NCBI RefSeq assembly: GCF_001458415.1
Contig: NZ_CYSD01000021.1
Coordinates: 124,001-188,000 of the forward strand
Direction: 5' to 3'
DNA length: 64,000 nt
Origin: Tritonibacter multivorans
Lineage (GTDB): Bacteria; Pseudomonadota; Alphaproteobacteria; Rhodobacterales; Rhodobacteraceae
Shown: positions 57,220 through 64,000 of the stretch, one piece after another
Numbering within the stretch: the stretch's first letter is position 1
How the letters are laid out: every line of letters begins with the position of its first letter
Notes under the pieces: generated by a model
What the model was told of the DNA's origin: nothing
Databases searched by the model: none
The model's input: the letters and a program-made list of their open reading frames with translations, nothing else
Program-made: the position numbers and the translations under genes

Positions 57220-58278
57220 CTAAGGTGCCGGCCCCAGCGATCCGCCCGCACGGAACGGCACGTCTTGTTCCTCTCGCAGGGTTTCCACGCGCTCCCCACG
57301 CACCCTGCGGATCAGAAGATGGGCCAGCCGCTCACCGGCAAAACGGTTGTCGACCGCGTAACTGGCAAGCGACGGCCGCGCGGCGGCGCCATCCTTGGTG
57401 CCGTCATAGGACACAATCGACAGATCGCGGCCAATGGTCAGCCCTTCCTCATGGGCCGCTTCCCAGGCCCCAAGCGCCGCAGCATCCACCGCATAGATCA
57501 GCGCAGTTGGGCGGTTCGCATGGGCCAGCAGGGCCCGCGCCGCATCCGCGCCCTGACTGCGGATCACCGCATTTTCACGGATCAGGTCCGGGTCGGCCTC
57601 CAACCCCAGATCCGAAAGCCCACGCAGGAACCCCGCAAGGCGCAGCTTTTCGTAATGATACCCCGGCGAACTGCCCACATAGCCAATCCGGCGATGCCCC
57701 GCCGCAAAGAGACGATGCACAGCATCGCGCATCGCCGCGCCGCCTTTGAAGTCAAACCACGCGCATCCCTCAGGGTCTGCCACCCGGCCAAACAGCACAA
57801 AGGGCACGTCCAAAGCCCGCAAATGCGCCACCCGCGGATCATCCGACCATGTGCGCGGCAGAATGAACCCATCCGCCTTGCGATCCTCAACCAGCTGCTG
57901 CATCCGCTTTAACACCGTGTCCTGCGTGTCCGCATTTGACACCGTCAGGGTCCAGCCTTCCTCGGCGGCGGCGCCCGAAGCGCCCGCCAGAAACTCTGCC
58001 AGAAACGGGTGATGCCCATCGTGGTTTCCGGCCTCGATGACCAGACCAATGGATTGCGACCTCCCGGTGCGAATGGCCTGCGCCTGTGTCAGCGGCCGAT
58101 AGCCCAGCCGCTCTGCCGCGCGCTCCACCCGCAGGCGCGTACTTTCCGAAATATCGCTATAGCCGTTCAGCGCGCGACTGATGGTGCCCTTGGTGATCCC
58201 AAGTTCCCGCGACAAATCCGAAATTGTCACGCGGCGCGCACCGGTCCCCATCCGTTTTGTGTTTTCTTGCCGAGTCAT
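57220..58278 (-). CDS. LacI-family transcriptional regulator
   Basis: 352 residues. Helix-turn-helix TISDLSRELGITKGTISRALNGYSD and hinge TQAQAIRTGRSQSIGLV, then the effector domain. GGGGGAG precedes the ATG. First gene of the importer/hydrolase operon, 28 bp downstream of a near-perfect palindrome (58306-58321). It most likely represses its own operon until a glycoside is present. Confidence 0.93.
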   Translation of the reverse strand: MTRQENTKRMGTGARRVTISDLSRELGITKGTISRALNGYSDISESTRLRVERAAERLGYRPLTQAQAIRTGRSQSIGLVIEAGNHDGHHPFLAEFLAGASGAAAEEGWTLTVSNADTQDTVLKRMQQLVEDRKADGFILPRTWSDDPRVAHLRALDVPFVLFGRVADPEGCAWFDFKGGAAMRDAVHRLFAAGHRRIGYVGSSPGYHYEKLRLAGFLRGLSDLGLEADPDLIRENAVIRSQGADAARALLAHANRPTALIYAVDAAALGAWEAAHEEGLTIGRDLSIVSYDGTKDGAAARPSLASYAVDNRFAGERLAHLLIRRVRGERVETLREEQDVPFRAGGSLGPAP

Positions 58279-58305
58279 CGCTCCCCCTAACCTTAAGAGA
58301 AAGTT

Positions 58306-58321
58306 CCGAAATCGGTTTCGG
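58306..58321. promoter_or_regulatory. LacI-type operator before the GH63 importer operon
   Basis: CCGAAATCGGTTTCGG matches the symmetric CCGAAACCGGTTTCGG at 15 of 16 positions and has the central CG typical of LacI operators. It lies 28-43 bp before the LacI start, where the promoter should be. Confidence 0.8.
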
Positions 58322-58594
58322 CAAGATATTTTTTTAACTGAATAAATTTCATGCCCATTTCACGGGCAAAAATTAGATAATAATTTTGAATTCTTAGCGC
58401 GACACACAGGCCAACCGCGAACCTGCGCCCAAAATACGGGCGACGTGTGCAAGAAAAACCCTGTACAACCAGCATTTGCGCTCTGAAAAAACCACCGGAA
58501 CAGGGAACCGGACCGGGCGGTTTCGGACCGGCAAGTGCAACCGCGCCACGCAAGGAACCTGCCCGACAGCGCGGAAAACCAAGCCCCCAGAAAC

Positions 58595-58619
58595 GAAAAA
58601 GAGCACCCAAGGGCGCTCT
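58595..58619 (-). terminator. Minus-strand rho-independent terminator
   Basis: On the minus strand AGAGCGCCC and GGGTGCTCT form a 9-bp stem with one mismatch and a TT loop, followed by TTTTTC. It lies 10 bp past the stop of a short open frame (58630), not past tniQ, which has its own terminator. Confidence 0.75.
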
Positions 58620-58675
58620 CTGTCTTACCTCAGAACTGCCATCGCAGGATCCCGCCCGCGTGCTGGGCGCTCTGT

Positions 58676-58797
58676 AGATCGGGGCAAAGTTGTCTCCAAT
58701 CAACCTGAAAAACCATGGGAATCCAATGATTTATTATTGTGTTTTTCGGCCTAGGAGCAAAGATCCCGCGAAAGTCCGAGGTAAGATCGCGCGAAAC
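58676..58797. repeat. Three AGATC-nn-G-nn-AAA repeats, possible transposase sites
   Basis: AGATCGGGGCAAAG (58676), AGATCCCGCGAAAG (58761) and AGATCGCGCGAAAC (58784) share the pattern AGATCnnGnnAAA. Multiple short direct repeats are typical of Tn7-like ends. The first copy is preceded by TG (TGTAGATC). The other transposon end is outside the window, so this is tentative. Confidence 0.35.
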
Positions 58798-58810
58798 CTT
58801 TGATTAGGCA

Positions 58811-58840
58811 ACAAAAAAGCCCGCCAAAGCGGGCTCGTTT
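58811..58840 (-). terminator. Rho-independent terminator of the transposition operon
   Basis: On the minus strand AGCCCGC-TTTG-GCGGGCT is followed by TTTTTGT. It lies about 25 bp past the tniQ stop. Confidence 0.9.
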
Positions 58841-58860
58841 TCCTGAACTGATGTGTAGAC

Positions 58861-60330
58861 CTAAGCTGCAAACCTTTCAGCAATCAAAGGTTTGACCGCG
58901 ACATATATAGATCCGACCCCTTTCCTGTCCGGATTTCGGAACGCGGCCGTCTTTCCTTTGAATATGTCTGCGAAAAGGTTTTCGAACCGGCCTGCGCCGC
59001 GCTGGCAGGCATAAGAAATCGAATGAACATCCTGCAGATCTGAACCACCTATTTCAGGCAAGTTCGCAATCCATCCCAAAATTTCATCGAGATGCGTCTG
59101 AGCGAACACAACGTGGCGATTGGACCCGCGTCCCGTCCGAGGGACAAGCGGTTGGAGTATTCCGGAACGATAGAGCGCTTCAAACTGATGTTTCGTTGCC
59201 ACGAGATAATCTGGAACATCGCGCATCGGGATTGCGCTTTGAAACGCCTCCACCAGTGGGACAGTCTCTTTGGCTTCAAACACCAGATTTCCGCACTCGA
59301 CCTCGGTCACATCGGCTGGAATTTCGCCCATGCTCTTGAGGAGACGCGCCAGACGTTTTCGTTCCACCCCGACAGTTTCCGACAAGCTGTTCAACGTGTG
59401 GAATCGCCGCTCGGTGATTTCAACGCCAAGAATGGAGGTGCCGGGCTCGACGGCCGAGTGTTTTACAATGTGGTCGCGCAGAAGGTCTCGGATTGGACCG
59501 GGATCGATTGCATTACATCTGCGATCCAACCAATCAAAGAGCTTCCCATAGTGCGCCAGCGGGCCCGCTTGAACGGCAGTCGCTGGCGATGTTTGGCGGA
59601 TCGTGTCGAGCGCTTCTTCAACGGCCTCAGGGCCCTCGCTGTAGATCGAGAACCCTATATCAGTGGCCTCTTCGATTTCTGCAGGTGAACGTTTGGTCAG
59701 CTTGACTTTGTGGCCGTGCTGCAAAACAGCACCGATCATTTCAGCGGCAGCCAGAACATGTTCAAGTGTTTGATCCGCAAGCCAAGGCGTCTCATCCACA
59801 ACCTGTCCATGGACCCGCGCGCGCAACCATTCGAGATAGGTTGGAACAGGGCCGACTGCGGCTTTGGGATCAGCCAAAGGCATATCACTCATAGCCACGC
59901 GCAAGTTGGTTGCTGAGGCCCTACCTGTTGGCTCGAGCCAGACACCGTGCTTCTCGCAGCGCTGAACGTGTCGGAAACCCCACATCAAACGGAAACGCCA
60001 ATCTTCCGGTGCACCGTCTTCGGCTAGGCAACAAGGGCAATAGCGAGCAGCACGTGGTGACAAGAAAGCCTTTGAAATCGGCTCACCGCGAAACTCTCCC
60101 CTGCGCCGCAATACCCGAATGGCATTGTCCATGTAGGTGCCAAACGTTTCACCAATTACCTCAACGAACTTCTCGACAGCTTCCGCGCGCCCAGACACGA
60201 AATGCTCGTGGTGGATCCCGTTGTCGCGCAAGAGCCGCTCCATCCCGCGGCTGGTATGGAAAATGGACAAGCGGTCGGCATAGGAAATCAGGGTTTCCTG
60301 CGGATCGAAGGGCAACTGAGGCCAGAGCAT
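58861..60330 (-). CDS. tniQ: TniQ/TnsD-family target-selection protein
   Basis: 489 residues from ATG 60330; upstream in-frame ATGs lie inside tnsC. The N-terminal TniQ domain (LPFDPQETLISYADRLSIFH) contains the zinc-binding cysteines and histidine in ARYCPCCLAED...HVQRCEKHGVW. A long C-terminal part (about 180-489) is closer in size to TnsD than to the short TniQ of Tn5053. It would bind a specific DNA site and recruit TnsC. Last gene of the module, followed by a strong terminator. Target site unknown. Confidence 0.9.
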   Translation of the reverse strand: MLWPQLPFDPQETLISYADRLSIFHTSRGMERLLRDNGIHHEHFVSGRAEAVEKFVEVIGETFGTYMDNAIRVLRRRGEFRGEPISKAFLSPRAARYCPCCLAEDGAPEDWRFRLMWGFRHVQRCEKHGVWLEPTGRASATNLRVAMSDMPLADPKAAVGPVPTYLEWLRARVHGQVVDETPWLADQTLEHVLAAAEMIGAVLQHGHKVKLTKRSPAEIEEATDIGFSIYSEGPEAVEEALDTIRQTSPATAVQAGPLAHYGKLFDWLDRRCNAIDPGPIRDLLRDHIVKHSAVEPGTSILGVEITERRFHTLNSLSETVGVERKRLARLLKSMGEIPADVTEVECGNLVFEAKETVPLVEAFQSAIPMRDVPDYLVATKHQFEALYRSGILQPLVPRTGRGSNRHVVFAQTHLDEILGWIANLPEIGGSDLQDVHSISYACQRGAGRFENLFADIFKGKTAAFRNPDRKGVGSIYVAVKPLIAERFAA

Positions 60331-60332
60331 GG

Positions 60333-61313
60333 TCACTGCCCCCATCCGATGGCCGAGAGTTCTCGCTGCACGTCCTGCCAGTCGCCAGAATGAAACGGGG
60401 TCATGCCGATGCACTTGGAGCTCTTGCGGTACACGACCTCTGCCCGAGAAAGGGTCAATTCCGTTCGTTTGCGGGTCACAGCATCCTTCAGGATCAGCTT
60501 GCCCAGTTCGACGCTCCGCCCGATCTGGCCGCGCTGGGCAAACAGGATGCGCTCGGCCATGGCGCTGCCGTCCGGCATGGCAAGACCAAGCATCTTGGCC
60601 GAATAGGCGACGTTCCGGATGAAATCCGAGACCTCCTTGCTGCCAGGCCGGATGTCACCCATGGAGAGTTCTTGGAAGCGGCGAGCGGTTTCGCCGGATT
60701 GTTCCGAGAGAATGTCATCGCGCAGGCTGGGAACGCCCGCGATGACCAGCGCCACCCCACCGGCGGATTGCATGATGTGCTTCAGGGATTGGATCGCACC
60801 TGCCACATCTCGGCCCGAGCCGCGGCGGAAGATGTGATGGCATTCATCGATGATGAGCGCCCGAATGCCGAAATTGGTCAGCCGATGCATGACCATCTCC
60901 CATGCATCCGCAGAGCGGATTTTGGCATCGACGCGATGGTAGCCCGTCCTTACAAGGATCAGCTCGGCAAGCTTCTTGATCGTCGCTTCGGGAGGCACGG
61001 TGATGTAGAGCGTGTTCCCCTCATGCCCCTCGGTTGCCTCCGTCAGAACAGGGTTCACCCGCAGCATCCGTTTCAGGAGCGCCGTTTTCCCGTCTCCGAA
61101 GCGGCCCAACACCATGAGGCCACGACTTTCGCCGGTCAGCGGATCGACCCGCGGCTGTGCGGTCATCGCGCCATTGTCGTCAATTTCGAAGAGATCGACG
61201 AGCTGGTCTTCCAGCTCATCTTCCATGCCAAAGCGCCAGTAGCGCGCCTCCAGCCATGCGGTCTTCTCGGTGGTCGTGGTCGGGGTTGCAGTCTGGGTCG
61301 TCATCCTGGTCAT
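60333..61313 (-). CDS. tnsC: TnsC/TniB-family AAA+ ATPase
   Basis: 326 residues. Walker A GRFGDGKTALL (about residue 70), Walker B ALIIDECHHIF (about 157) and sensor region VALVIAGVPSL. The ATPase forms filaments on DNA and links TniQ to the transposase. Its start overlaps the transposase stop by 4 nt, and tniQ begins 2 nt after its stop. Confidence 0.92.
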   Translation of the reverse strand: MTRMTTQTATPTTTTEKTAWLEARYWRFGMEDELEDQLVDLFEIDDNGAMTAQPRVDPLTGESRGLMVLGRFGDGKTALLKRMLRVNPVLTEATEGHEGNTLYITVPPEATIKKLAELILVRTGYHRVDAKIRSADAWEMVMHRLTNFGIRALIIDECHHIFRRGSGRDVAGAIQSLKHIMQSAGGVALVIAGVPSLRDDILSEQSGETARRFQELSMGDIRPGSKEVSDFIRNVAYSAKMLGLAMPDGSAMAERILFAQRGQIGRSVELGKLILKDAVTRKRTELTLSRAEVVYRKSSKCIGMTPFHSGDWQDVQRELSAIGWGQ

Positions 61314-63517
61314 TCCATCGTGTGATTGTCGTCGTCCGCCTGCACGTGGTGATCGGCAGTCGTTTCTTCGTGTGCATGATTGGCAGCAGGGGTAGTGTCG
61401 GTCGGTGCCGTGCCGTCGAGGTCGCCCATCAATGGGCGATGCGGGCCCGCCTTGTGTCGACGCTCCGCGGTGTCGGTATGGCGCATGAAACGCTGGGTCT
61501 CGTATTCAAGTTCATCCACAGTTTTGGGTAGAGAAATCAAACCCATCACGCGTTTGAGGCGGTACGACTCGCGATTGCCGTCGTTGATAAAGTCGCGCCG
61601 CGCTAGACACTCAGCATCGATATCAGCCGCGTCCGCATCATCCTCCTCCGCCAGTTCGGCCAGCATCTCCAACTCGCTCTTGCCGATCCAGCGCTCATCA
61701 CAGGCTGGCACGGTCATCCATGAGCCAATACCCGCGCGCACAGAGATGGTACCGATATCACCGTCCCAACGCAGAATCTCGACATCGTCGACCTTCTCGG
61801 TGAGGCACATGTGCATGAGCGCATCGGACTGGTAGTCTATTTTGTGAACGAGAACGCCCTTGCGCGTCAGCTTTCGGCGCGTGCGGACACCGAAGACTTC
61901 ACGCATCTCATCGCTTGTCAGGGATCGCGGTGGGCACTCCTTGCAGCCTCTTTCCCAAGCCTGCGCGGGGGACATGCCAAGCGCGGAGTGCTCCTTGGTG
62001 TGGTAGGCGTCAACAACCCAGCGCACAAGCCAGCACAGGAAGGCCTCCAGCGTCAGGGTCGCTCGAGCCGCGGCGTCGTTCTCACCGCGCTCGACGACAT
62101 TGCTGAATGCCCTGCCGGAGAACCGTAAGAGCAAATCGTTATGAACCGTCCGGAAGACCCGCTTGATATAGGGTTTCAGCCATGGTTTGCCTGCGGGGCA
62201 ACCAAGATTGGTGATCCCGAGATCAGCAAGGACTTCGTATGCATCGTCCGAGATGTACTTATCGCCGCGGTCAAAAACGATACTCTCAGGTGCCCCACCC
62301 ATCGGCCAACCAAACCTGGCGCCGGCCGCATCGGCGATGGGCGACTTGTCCATGTAGATCATCTCGAGGGTCCGGGCGAGCGGGCTCTCGACGCCTTGCG
62401 GGACGATCTGCAAAGCCACGAAGCAGCGGGTGTGGACGTCGATAGCGCCAGACAAGCTGACCCGGCTGGCTTTGCCGTCCAGCCCAATCAGCTGCTTGAT
62501 CGTCTGCGGCAGGTGATCAAAAAGGCCGGTTTCGCGCATGAGTACGAACAGATCTACCGTGTATTCGTCAACTTCGACCCTCTCCAACACGCGGGACGTC
62601 ATGACTCCCATGCCAAGCGTGTGCAGGTCTTTATAAGCCTTATCGCGGCTGTTCCTGCGCAGCGCATGATTGATCGGCGCCAACTCCCTAATCTTGTCCC
62701 TGATGTAGTCGTAACCTGGCCGCCGCAGCTTGATTGCGGGCACAGGCAACCGCTCCCTGCGTTCATTTTCGGCGTTAATCGCAGCCTGAACGCTTTCTAC
62801 GAAAGACGTGATTGTCGGCTTCTCACAATCCCACAGCATATCAAGATGGCGTTCGATGAAGCTATCGGTCGCATCGTTGTACCGTTTATAGCGACCGCAA
62901 TTGCGGTATTTATCGAACAAGCCGTCGTCGCCGTTGACCACCCATGCCCTATACCATTTCCACATGGTGTGGCCGCATTTAAATCCCTGATGGAACTCGA
63001 CGGCGCGGTCCTGCGCCTTCTTGGTTTTCTGAACCTTGGTACCGCCGCGCTTTGTTTCCCGCATCGACAATGCAGCCAGGTATTCGCGGTACCGCTGGCC
63101 TCCGTTCGCGATGATAGTGATGATCTTCGCGCAAAAATCATCTCGAACAGGGTTAAGTTCACCCCGGTCAAGCATGCCCTGAATGGCTAGGACATACTGT
63201 TTTCGGAACTTCTGACGCGCGACCTCCGCAAGGACCCGTTCGCTACGGCGGATGCGGTCGCTCGCCGTCGGTTGAACCAAGGGGCGCTTGAGGATCTTAA
63301 GAACCCCATAATTGTTGTCCGTGACAATGGCATCATAGCTGTAGATACCGGCAGTGCTCTCGTGGCACTCCCCGCTGTCAGGATCGGTCCACGGCTCCCA
63401 GAAAACGAAATATCCTTCCGGGCGCAATTCGAGGACACGCCCTTTGCGCAGGCCGATCTGAAAATCGCAGCCCTTTTCCAGAAGCATTTTGATGTTTTTC
63501 TTGAAAGGAGCCGCCAT
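61310..63517 (-). CDS. tnsB: TnsB/TniA-family DDE transposase with Glu-to-Lys at the catalytic site
   Basis: 735 residues, full length. An N-terminal DNA-binding region (about 1-290) is followed by the integrase core with Asp317 (VEVDEYTVDL) and Asp416 (IVFDRGDKY). The third acidic residue should be Glu, 35 residues further on in an ER-F motif; here the codon at 62162-62164 is AAG (Lys452, PYIKRVFRTV). Spacing is exactly that of DD(35)E. A C-terminal beta-barrel and charged tail complete the protein. The enzyme would normally cut the 3' ends and join them to target DNA; with Lys at this position it is probably inactive. Confidence 0.9.
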   Translation of the reverse strand: MAAPFKKNIKMLLEKGCDFQIGLRKGRVLELRPEGYFVFWEPWTDPDSGECHESTAGIYSYDAIVTDNNYGVLKILKRPLVQPTASDRIRRSERVLAEVARQKFRKQYVLAIQGMLDRGELNPVRDDFCAKIITIIANGGQRYREYLAALSMRETKRGGTKVQKTKKAQDRAVEFHQGFKCGHTMWKWYRAWVVNGDDGLFDKYRNCGRYKRYNDATDSFIERHLDMLWDCEKPTITSFVESVQAAINAENERRERLPVPAIKLRRPGYDYIRDKIRELAPINHALRRNSRDKAYKDLHTLGMGVMTSRVLERVEVDEYTVDLFVLMRETGLFDHLPQTIKQLIGLDGKASRVSLSGAIDVHTRCFVALQIVPQGVESPLARTLEMIYMDKSPIADAAGARFGWPMGGAPESIVFDRGDKYISDDAYEVLADLGITNLGCPAGKPWLKPYIKRVFRTVHNDLLLRFSGRAFSNVVERGENDAAARATLTLEAFLCWLVRWVVDAYHTKEHSALGMSPAQAWERGCKECPPRSLTSDEMREVFGVRTRRKLTRKGVLVHKIDYQSDALMHMCLTEKVDDVEILRWDGDIGTISVRAGIGSWMTVPACDERWIGKSELEMLAELAEEDDADAADIDAECLARRDFINDGNRESYRLKRVMGLISLPKTVDELEYETQRFMRHTDTAERRHKAGPHRPLMGDLDGTAPTDTTPAANHAHEETTADHHVQADDDNHTME

Positions 63518-64000
63518 CAGGTCGTCTCCCCGCAGATGATCAAGCTCCGGCCAGTGATCTTTTCACGATTGAACAGCTTGGCTTCGCCAAGCCGGATTGC
63601 GCGTGCGACGCTGCGAAAGCCGACCCCCTCAAGGCCAATTTCGGCGAGGAAATCGGAAATGCGGACCGGAGAAGTGACCAGTTGCAGCGCCGCAATGACA
63701 CGTGCATCCAATTCGACTTCTGGATCGCGCGAGGAGTGAAACAGCTTCGCATTATGCAATTCGACCGGATCGATGTTGCGTTCGGTGAAGGTGCGCACTT
63801 CATCGCAGATATTACCGATCGCTGCCTGCCTGATGCAGTCCATCTTTGCGCGATATTGGTACGTCTGGGCGATCCTTTCGGGCTTTACCGAGATGCAAAC
63901 CCGGCGCCCACATTTGAACGTCACCCTGAAATCGAAGAAATGCTCCGATTTCTTGCCATTGGGCAAAACGAAGGGCAGCGACGCTAGCTGTTCTTCGACG
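63517..64000 (-). CDS. tnsA: TnsA-like endonuclease, 5' end outside window
   Basis: The frame is open to the right edge, so the start lies outside; a TTG at 63966 is not the true start. The visible part carries HFFDFRVTFKCGRRVCISVKP, which fits the Asp...x-Val-Lys end of the TnsA catalytic site (restriction-endonuclease fold). The expected N-terminal Glu is beyond the window. The C-terminal 90 residues look like the winged-helix TnsC-binding part. It would cut the 5' ends of the element. It overlaps the transposase start by 1 nt. Confidence 0.75.
   Translation of the reverse strand, partial: VEEQLASLPFVLPNGKKSEHFFDFRVTFKCGRRVCISVKPERIAQTYQYRAKMDCIRQAAIGNICDEVRTFTERNIDPVELHNAKLFHSSRDPEVELDARVIAALQLVTSPVRISDFLAEIGLEGVGFRSVARAIRLGEAKLFNREKITGRSLIICGETT

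What the first reader, a model, noticed from the sequence alone, without database searches (positions are those of the whole stretch)
61310..63517. Tn7-like transposase with Lys in place of the catalytic Glu (DDK instead of DDE)
Asp317 and Asp416 are present and the third position falls exactly 35 residues after Asp416, as in DD(35)E transposases, but the codon is AAG (62162-62164). GAG to AAG is a single transition. All other module genes are intact, so either the element was frozen recently, another copy supplies transposase in trans, or the protein has kept only DNA-binding roles.
Basis: partly seen in the sequence, partly recalled or inferred. Interest (0 to 1): 0.72.

Follow-up and report, generated by a model that had tools for sequence, protein, structure and literature searches.

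The report
Point-mutated, stranded Tn7-like transposase gene
A bacterial jumping gene has probably lost the key acidic residue of its cutting enzyme through a one-letter change and is stuck in place, which is ordinary decay; its relatives insert right behind one respiratory-chain gene, a target I found no paper on.

Summary
The 735-aa TnsB at 61310-63517(-) has Asp317, Asp416 and AAG (Lys) at codon 452 (62164-62162). Lys452 aligns with catalytic Glu344 of Tn6677 TnsB. Of 120 distinct homologues aligned, 117 have Glu, one (L035) is frameshifted there and two are truncated.

The gene lies in a Tn7-like element (tnsA-tnsB-tnsC-tniQ). Its ends are at window 58673 and at C19:1051 of the same genome, with matching inverted repeats and a 5-bp target duplication. 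The left end abuts the stop codon of an NDUFS4-like complex I gene, as in 9 of 9 distinct elements of this family that I mapped.

The genome search gave no second tnsB and no further pair of ends, so rescue by a resident copy is unlikely. "All other module genes intact" is only partly right: TnsC has an unusual Phe in Walker A, and transposase genes and a cut hsdR piece lie in the cargo. The three closest relatives also have broken tnsB genes.

Best reading: recent loss of function in a stranded element. A base error cannot be excluded. Interest low to moderate.

The parts
61310..63517 (-). tnsB, 735 aa, Tn7-like transposase with Lys at the catalytic Glu position
   Evidence: ORF and translation; rve and Mu-transpos_C matches below Pfam cut-off; family profile matches solved TnsB chains, best E 1e-35
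62162..62164 (-). codon 452, AAG (Lys); Glu in 117 of 120 distinct homologues aligned
62270..62272 (-). codon of Asp416, second catalytic Asp (present)
62567..62569 (-). codon of Asp317, first catalytic Asp (present)
63517..64000 (-). tnsA, 234 aa; its start lies beyond the window, at L048 12221
   Evidence: PF08722 below cut-off; Glu (ASMYE), Asp (FFDF) and Lys (SVKP) invariant in the six sequences aligned
60333..61313 (-). tnsC/tniB AAA+ regulator, 326 aa
   Evidence: PF05621 1.2e-17; conservation
61098..61100 (-). TnsC codon 72, Phe in the Walker A loop (GRFGDGKT)
58861..60330 (-). tniQ/tnsD-type target selector, 489 aa from an internal ATG near the start of the match to relatives (517 aa from an upstream GTG)
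   Evidence: PF06527 1.4e-15
58673..58696 (+). right end of the element, terminal inverted repeat; its partner is C19:1028-1051(-), outside the window
58754..58774 (+). internal end repeat, probable second TnsB binding site (inferred)
   Evidence: a similar internal repeat at the left end, C19:1021(-). The relaxed 11-base pattern also has 41 matches in window 1-58000, both strands, so single matches are weak evidence
58668..58672 (.). 5-bp target-site duplication CGCTC; the other copy is C19:1052-1056

Best explanation
This is an inactivated TnsB in a single-copy Tn7-like element. The element arrived by ordinary targeted transposition behind the NDUFS4-like gene, as its matching ends and 5-bp duplication show (shown). 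Later a G-to-A transition changed the catalytic Glu of TnsB to Lys (inferred from relatives). Lys should not bind the catalytic metal ions, so TnsB should no longer cut the 3' ends or join them to a target; TnsA could at most nick the 5' ends (both inferred from known TnsA/TnsB chemistry). With no second tnsB found in the genome, the element is stranded and has begun to decay (inferred).
For: Lys452 is at the column of Glu344 of Tn6677 TnsB (residue names from passages of PMC13345079). Glu in 117 of 120 distinct homologues, Lys in none of them. No new acidic residue in the stretch 436-466; Asp432, which differs from the more distant relatives, is shared with L035 and L036, which have Glu codons, so it is no substitute. 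Ends, 5-bp duplication and insertion point match those of eight other distinct elements. One tnsB and one pair of ends found in the genome. Other changes: TnsC Ser72Phe, transposase genes and a cut hsdR piece in the cargo. The three nearest relatives by identity are also broken: L035 by deletions around the third catalytic residue, L036 and L038 by truncation. Rest of TnsB conserved: 3 deviations at 93 columns invariant in 16 relatives, dN/dS about 0.10 against L035 over 430 codons, so the loss looks recent.
Against: No activity data. TnsB is otherwise well kept, which would also fit a base error or a retained non-catalytic role. The AlphaFold model was too poor to look at the pocket (mean pLDDT 37.7). 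Phe at this Walker A position is not proof of damage; I recall Phe there in V-type ATPase A subunits. L035 is a MAG, so its deletions may be assembly errors.
Confidence: 0.8

Rival explanations
1. Sequencing or assembly error at 62164: the organism has Glu and a TnsB with an intact triad.
For: A single base; no reads to check; the rest of TnsB is conserved.
Against: The codon is not in a homopolymer and lies about 3.8 kb from the contig end. A second unusual substitution sits in the next gene, which one error does not explain.
Confidence: 0.08
2. Retained non-catalytic TnsB: it still binds the ends and TnsC, and serves for target immunity, for repression, or as a spoiler of incoming related elements at the same site.
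For: Full-length frame, low dN/dS, end repeats on both sides, operon partners present. TnsB complexes contain protomers whose active sites are not properly positioned (PMC9527255, abstract passages). L038 keeps a TnsB C-terminal part with tnsC and tniQ.
Against: No lineage of Lys-bearing TnsB: 1 of the 119 rows that reach the column. Near relatives lose different parts of TnsB, as in plain decay. TnsC has a Walker A change of its own. Too little is known of the time since the change to test selection.
Confidence: 0.08
3. The element is still mobile because an active TnsB of a related element acts on it in trans.
For: Relatives with unbroken tnsB, Glu and very similar ends exist in other genera.
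Against: None found in this genome, which is listed as 99.94% complete. It would need a newly arriving element.
Confidence: 0.03
4. A working DDK transposase, with Lys or another residue in the role of Glu.
For: Nothing beyond the intact frame.
Against: Metal-ion catalysis needs an acidic ligand here (established knowledge of DDE enzymes); PMC9527255 names acidic triads, DDE or DDD (passages). None of the 120 homologues has Lys.
Confidence: 0.01

Closest known systems
Tn7 and Tn7-like transposons with TnsA, TnsB, TnsC and a TnsD-type TniQ (insertion behind glmS: PMC2918618, start of abstract seen)
   Same: Same four-gene set, TGT-starting inverted ends, 5-bp target duplication, insertion at one fixed point behind a conserved gene
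   Different: The target is an NDUFS4-like complex I gene, not glmS; TnsB here lacks the catalytic Glu; TnsC has an odd Walker A residue
   Same: TnsB 65-67% identical, very similar ends, same insertion point, 5-bp duplication
   Different: They have Glu at the catalytic position and Ser in Walker A
TnsB of the CRISPR-associated transposons Tn6677 (9y7b) and PseCAST (30jv)
   Same: Best matches among solved structures; triad positions align one to one with Tn6677 TnsB
   Different: They carry Glu and belong to RNA-guided elements; I saw no cas gene among the ORFs scanned in the assembled part of this element

Membership tests
Tn7-like transposon | tnsA, tnsB, tnsC and tniQ/tnsD side by side on one strand | tested here: met
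   TniB and TniQ over Pfam cut-off; TnsA-N, rve and Mu-transpos_C below cut-off; family profile to solved TnsB chains E 1e-35
Tn7-like transposon | TGT...ACA inverted ends with repeated TnsB sites | tested here: met
   Ends at window 58673 and C19:1051; inner repeats (with a background of 41 matches in 58 kb); binding by TnsB not tested
Tn7-like transposon | 5-bp target-site duplication | tested here: met
   CGCTC at both outer flanks
Tn7-like transposon | fixed insertion point behind a conserved gene (TnsD-type targeting) | tested here: met
   9 of 9 distinct elements mapped have the left end at the NDUFS4-like stop codon; that TniQ does the targeting is inferred
Active DDE transposase (TnsB/TniA) | acidic triad D, D, E | tested here: not met
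   D317 and D416 present; K452 in place of E
Active DDE transposase (TnsB/TniA) | strand transfer activity | not testable with these tools
   needs a bench assay
CRISPR-associated transposon (CAST) | cas effector genes and array inside the element | tested here: inconclusive
   Five ORFs of the assembled element besides tnsB, tnsC and tniQ were scanned with Pfam and none is a cas gene, but not all ORFs were scanned and the middle of the element is missing between contigs C21 and C19

The most novel reading that the evidence does not exclude
The Lys452 TnsB is kept as a catalytically silent end-binding and TnsC-binding protein that guards the NDUFS4 site against related elements, a natural dominant-negative transposase.
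Probability: 0.05. Interest if true: 0.65.

Novelty: new member of a known kind. Interest (0 to 1): 0.27.

Why it matters
As a finding it is mostly a clean example of how a targeted element dies by one base change in its transposase while ends, target duplication and partner genes are still readable. It gives a natural loss-of-catalysis allele for tests of what TnsB does besides cutting (end binding, immunity). The more useful by-product is a fixed insertion point, the 3' end of an NDUFS4-like complex I gene, shared by 9 of 9 distinct elements mapped. Full-text searches for Tn7-like with NDUFS4 and with attachment site, NADH dehydrogenase and TniQ gave no paper.

Tried and rejected
A second transposase copy in the genome: one match only. 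A displaced catalytic Glu: none gained in 436-466. Tandem repeats in window 57500-64000: none. Comparing the two sides of the operon within the contig gave no pair of ends, because the left end lies on another contig; comparison with L035 solved it. RNA gene or tRNA near the right end: one sub-threshold Rfam match of a plant-type microRNA family and no tRNA. Relatives of this tnsB in viral contigs: none. TniB-family hits on C18, C37 and C25 lie in frames of 804-896 aa; from their size alone I take them to be other ATPases, and the same model also rings in 13 of 14 control genomes. Papers: the search for a Glu-to-Lys DDE case gave two general papers, not read; TnsB with E396 none; Tn10 with E292 one review, not read. 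A broader search for Tn7-like insertion near complex I gave 16 papers, 12 listed, of which I opened only PMC10293859 and PMC9527255.

Literature seen: PMC10293859, PMC9527255, PMC13345079 and PMC8188705 as search listing plus passages; PMC2918618 as listing with the start of the abstract. Other Tn7 biochemistry, the catalytic residues of TnsA, the label 'IS3-type' and the V-type ATPase remark are recalled.

Limits of the survey: one search found matches in 98 of 394 genomes of the family, in 11 of 18 of the genus, in 86 of 390 of the order (at E 1e-30 or better). I aligned the loci returned by these calls plus 60 fetched places, chosen mostly from the stronger rows; some stronger rows (e.g. 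G653:C6, G453, G618, G644, G543) and most weaker rows were not aligned. Own copies (L001, L048, L049) and exact duplicate proteins were left out of the count. In one search one of 17 chosen relatives (L032) was absent because its protein duplicated another row; the window protein was compared with 16 relatives, each relative with the 15 others. In one search, 75 tnsC-like frames were found; 49 distinct ones had the motif, 23 rows had none in frame and 3 were duplicates. In one search the backward control pattern had one chance match in G000. In one search the relaxed end core had 12 matches in the window against 7.0 expected by shuffles; only one was exact.

Full report
What is there. The minus strand from about 64.2 kb (just beyond the window) down to 58.9 kb carries tnsA (234 aa), tnsB (735 aa), tnsC (326 aa) and tniQ (489 aa from the ATG used here). 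tnsB is at 61310-63517(-). Its codon 452 is AAG, at 62164-62162. Asp317 and Asp416 are in place.

Is it the catalytic position? A profile of seven family members finds solved TnsB chains, best E 1e-35 for a PseCAST TnsAB and 8.9e-32 for Tn6677 TnsB, 9y7b. Counting along the printed alignment to 9y7b, window positions 317, 416 and 452 fall on Asp223, Asp308 and Glu344, which a 2026 preprint names as the triad (PMC13345079, passages). The step between the second and third member is 36 in both.

Is it unusual? In an alignment of 120 distinct homologues, 117 have Glu in this column. One, L035, is out of frame there, and two, L038 and L008, are truncated. Positions 317 and 416 are Asp in all 119 rows that reach them, the window protein included. 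The sample leans to the closer relatives, and weaker matches were not aligned. In 14 loci (13 distinct) whose codon was read, it is GAG or GAA; one G-to-A transition from GAG gives AAG. No acidic residue is gained in 436-466. Asp432 differs from the more distant relatives but is shared with L035 and L036, which have Glu codons.

Is the rest of the protein kept? Against 16 relatives, 93 columns were otherwise invariant; the window protein departs at three: R233K, A357G and E452K. The same test gave the 16 relatives 0 to 13 departures. Against L035, over the 430 codons before its frameshift, dN/dS is about 0.10 with dS about 0.6. A long time without selection would have left a higher ratio, so either the loss is recent or TnsB is still kept for something else. 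L035 is itself broken, so this is a rough guide.

The element and its ends. Comparison with L035 showed a short sequence at window 58673 that recurs inverted at the far end of the L035 element. In the window's genome the pattern has two matches at up to 3 mismatches, and its backward control none: window 58673 and contig C19:1030-1051. The outer five bases agree: CGCTC before 58673, and CGCTC after C19:1051. The C19 end abuts the stop codon of a 107-aa NDUFS4-like protein (PF04800, 7.7e-35). Contig C21 ends inside the element in an HTH_Tnp_1 transposase gene (IS3-type orfA, by recall), and C19 begins in another, next to a C-terminal piece of a type I restriction subunit. The middle of the element is therefore not assembled; its size and full cargo are not known.

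The family. The same ends were searched in ten other genome handles. Two pairs of these gave identical places, so eight further distinct elements remain. All nine, the window's included, have the left end at the NDUFS4-like stop codon, overlapping it or at most two bases behind it, and all nine have matching 5-bp flanks at the two ends (pairs compared by eye). In two of the other eight, G006 and G661, as in the window's genome, the two ends lie on different contigs. In the window's element, L035 and G006 the duplicated five bases include two bases of the stop codon. This is like Tn7's insertion behind glmS with another target gene. That TniQ reads the 3' end of the NDUFS4-like gene is inferred. 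Searches for Tn7-like with NDUFS4, and for Tn7-like with attachment site, NADH dehydrogenase and TniQ, gave no paper, and the survey PMC10293859 has no 'NADH' in its main text. Subscription papers were not seen.

Could another copy help? The genome, listed as 99.94% complete, gave one tnsB match and no further pair of ends. The contig runs through the right end without a break, which also speaks against a second, collapsed copy (inference).

Other damage. TnsC reads GRFGDGKT at Walker A. Of 75 tnsC-like frames found, 49 distinct ones have the motif; the third position is Ser in 32, Pro in 10, Ala in 5, Thr in 1 and Phe only here. I recall Phe at this place in V-type ATPase A subunits, so loss of function is not certain. 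TnsA keeps a Glu, Asp and Lys that are invariant in the six sequences aligned; that these are its catalytic residues is recalled from Tn7. The three nearest relatives of TnsB by identity (74.7 to 78.7% over the parts that align) are all broken: L035, from a MAG, by a 13-base and a 2-base deletion around the third catalytic residue, with a one-base deletion and insertion between them; L036 by loss of the first 100 residues and a fusion into tnsC; L038 by loss of everything before residue 466. Seven more distant members with the same ends have unbroken frames and Glu.

How it most likely works. TnsB cuts the 3' ends and joins them to the target; TnsA cuts the 5' ends (PMC8188705, passages). With Lys in place of Glu the site should not hold the metal ions, so neither 3' cutting nor joining should occur. 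TnsB could still bind the ends and TnsC. The element then stays where it is and decays. I put this at 0.8. A base error has about 0.08, a retained silent role about 0.08. The structure prediction did not help (mean pLDDT 37.7).

Novelty. A Tn7-like element with a dead transposase is an ordinary stage of decay. The fixed NDUFS4 insertion point of this family is the part most worth following.

Noticed in passing
L051 (C19) 1028-1378; L129, L133-L138 and L141 around 1501: Nine of nine distinct elements of this family that were mapped insert at the stop codon of an NDUFS4-like complex I gene with a 5-bp duplication; possibly an undescribed attachment site.
   Followed up: partly
window 61098-61100: TnsC has Phe in the Walker A loop where the other 48 of 49 distinct frames with the motif have Ser, Pro, Ala or Thr.
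   Followed up: yes
L147/L150 and L149/L151, around 1501-1551: In G411 and G661 a second end sequence lies directly beyond the right end, facing the other way, as if an older element had been displaced by a new insertion at the same site.
   Followed up: no
window 58861-63517 against L035 and L038: Genes of one operon differ in divergence: tnsA and the front of tnsB are close to L035 (dS 0.6-0.7), tnsC is closer to L038 (dS 0.8), tniQ is far from both (dS over 2.5), which suggests exchange of modules.
   Followed up: no
L036 8034-17233: A decayed relative on a Thioclava plasmid (tnsB-tnsC fusion, short tniQ) lies beside a type I-E CRISPR-Cas set with cas1 and cas2.
   Followed up: no
L048 12294-12330 (just beyond the window): A 17-base inverted repeat with a 3-base loop upstream of tnsA, possibly a regulatory or terminator hairpin.
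   Followed up: no
L051 247-903 and 2-202; L048 13697-13918: C-terminal piece of a type I restriction subunit at the left end, with HTH_Tnp_1 transposase genes on both sides of the assembly gap.
   Followed up: partly
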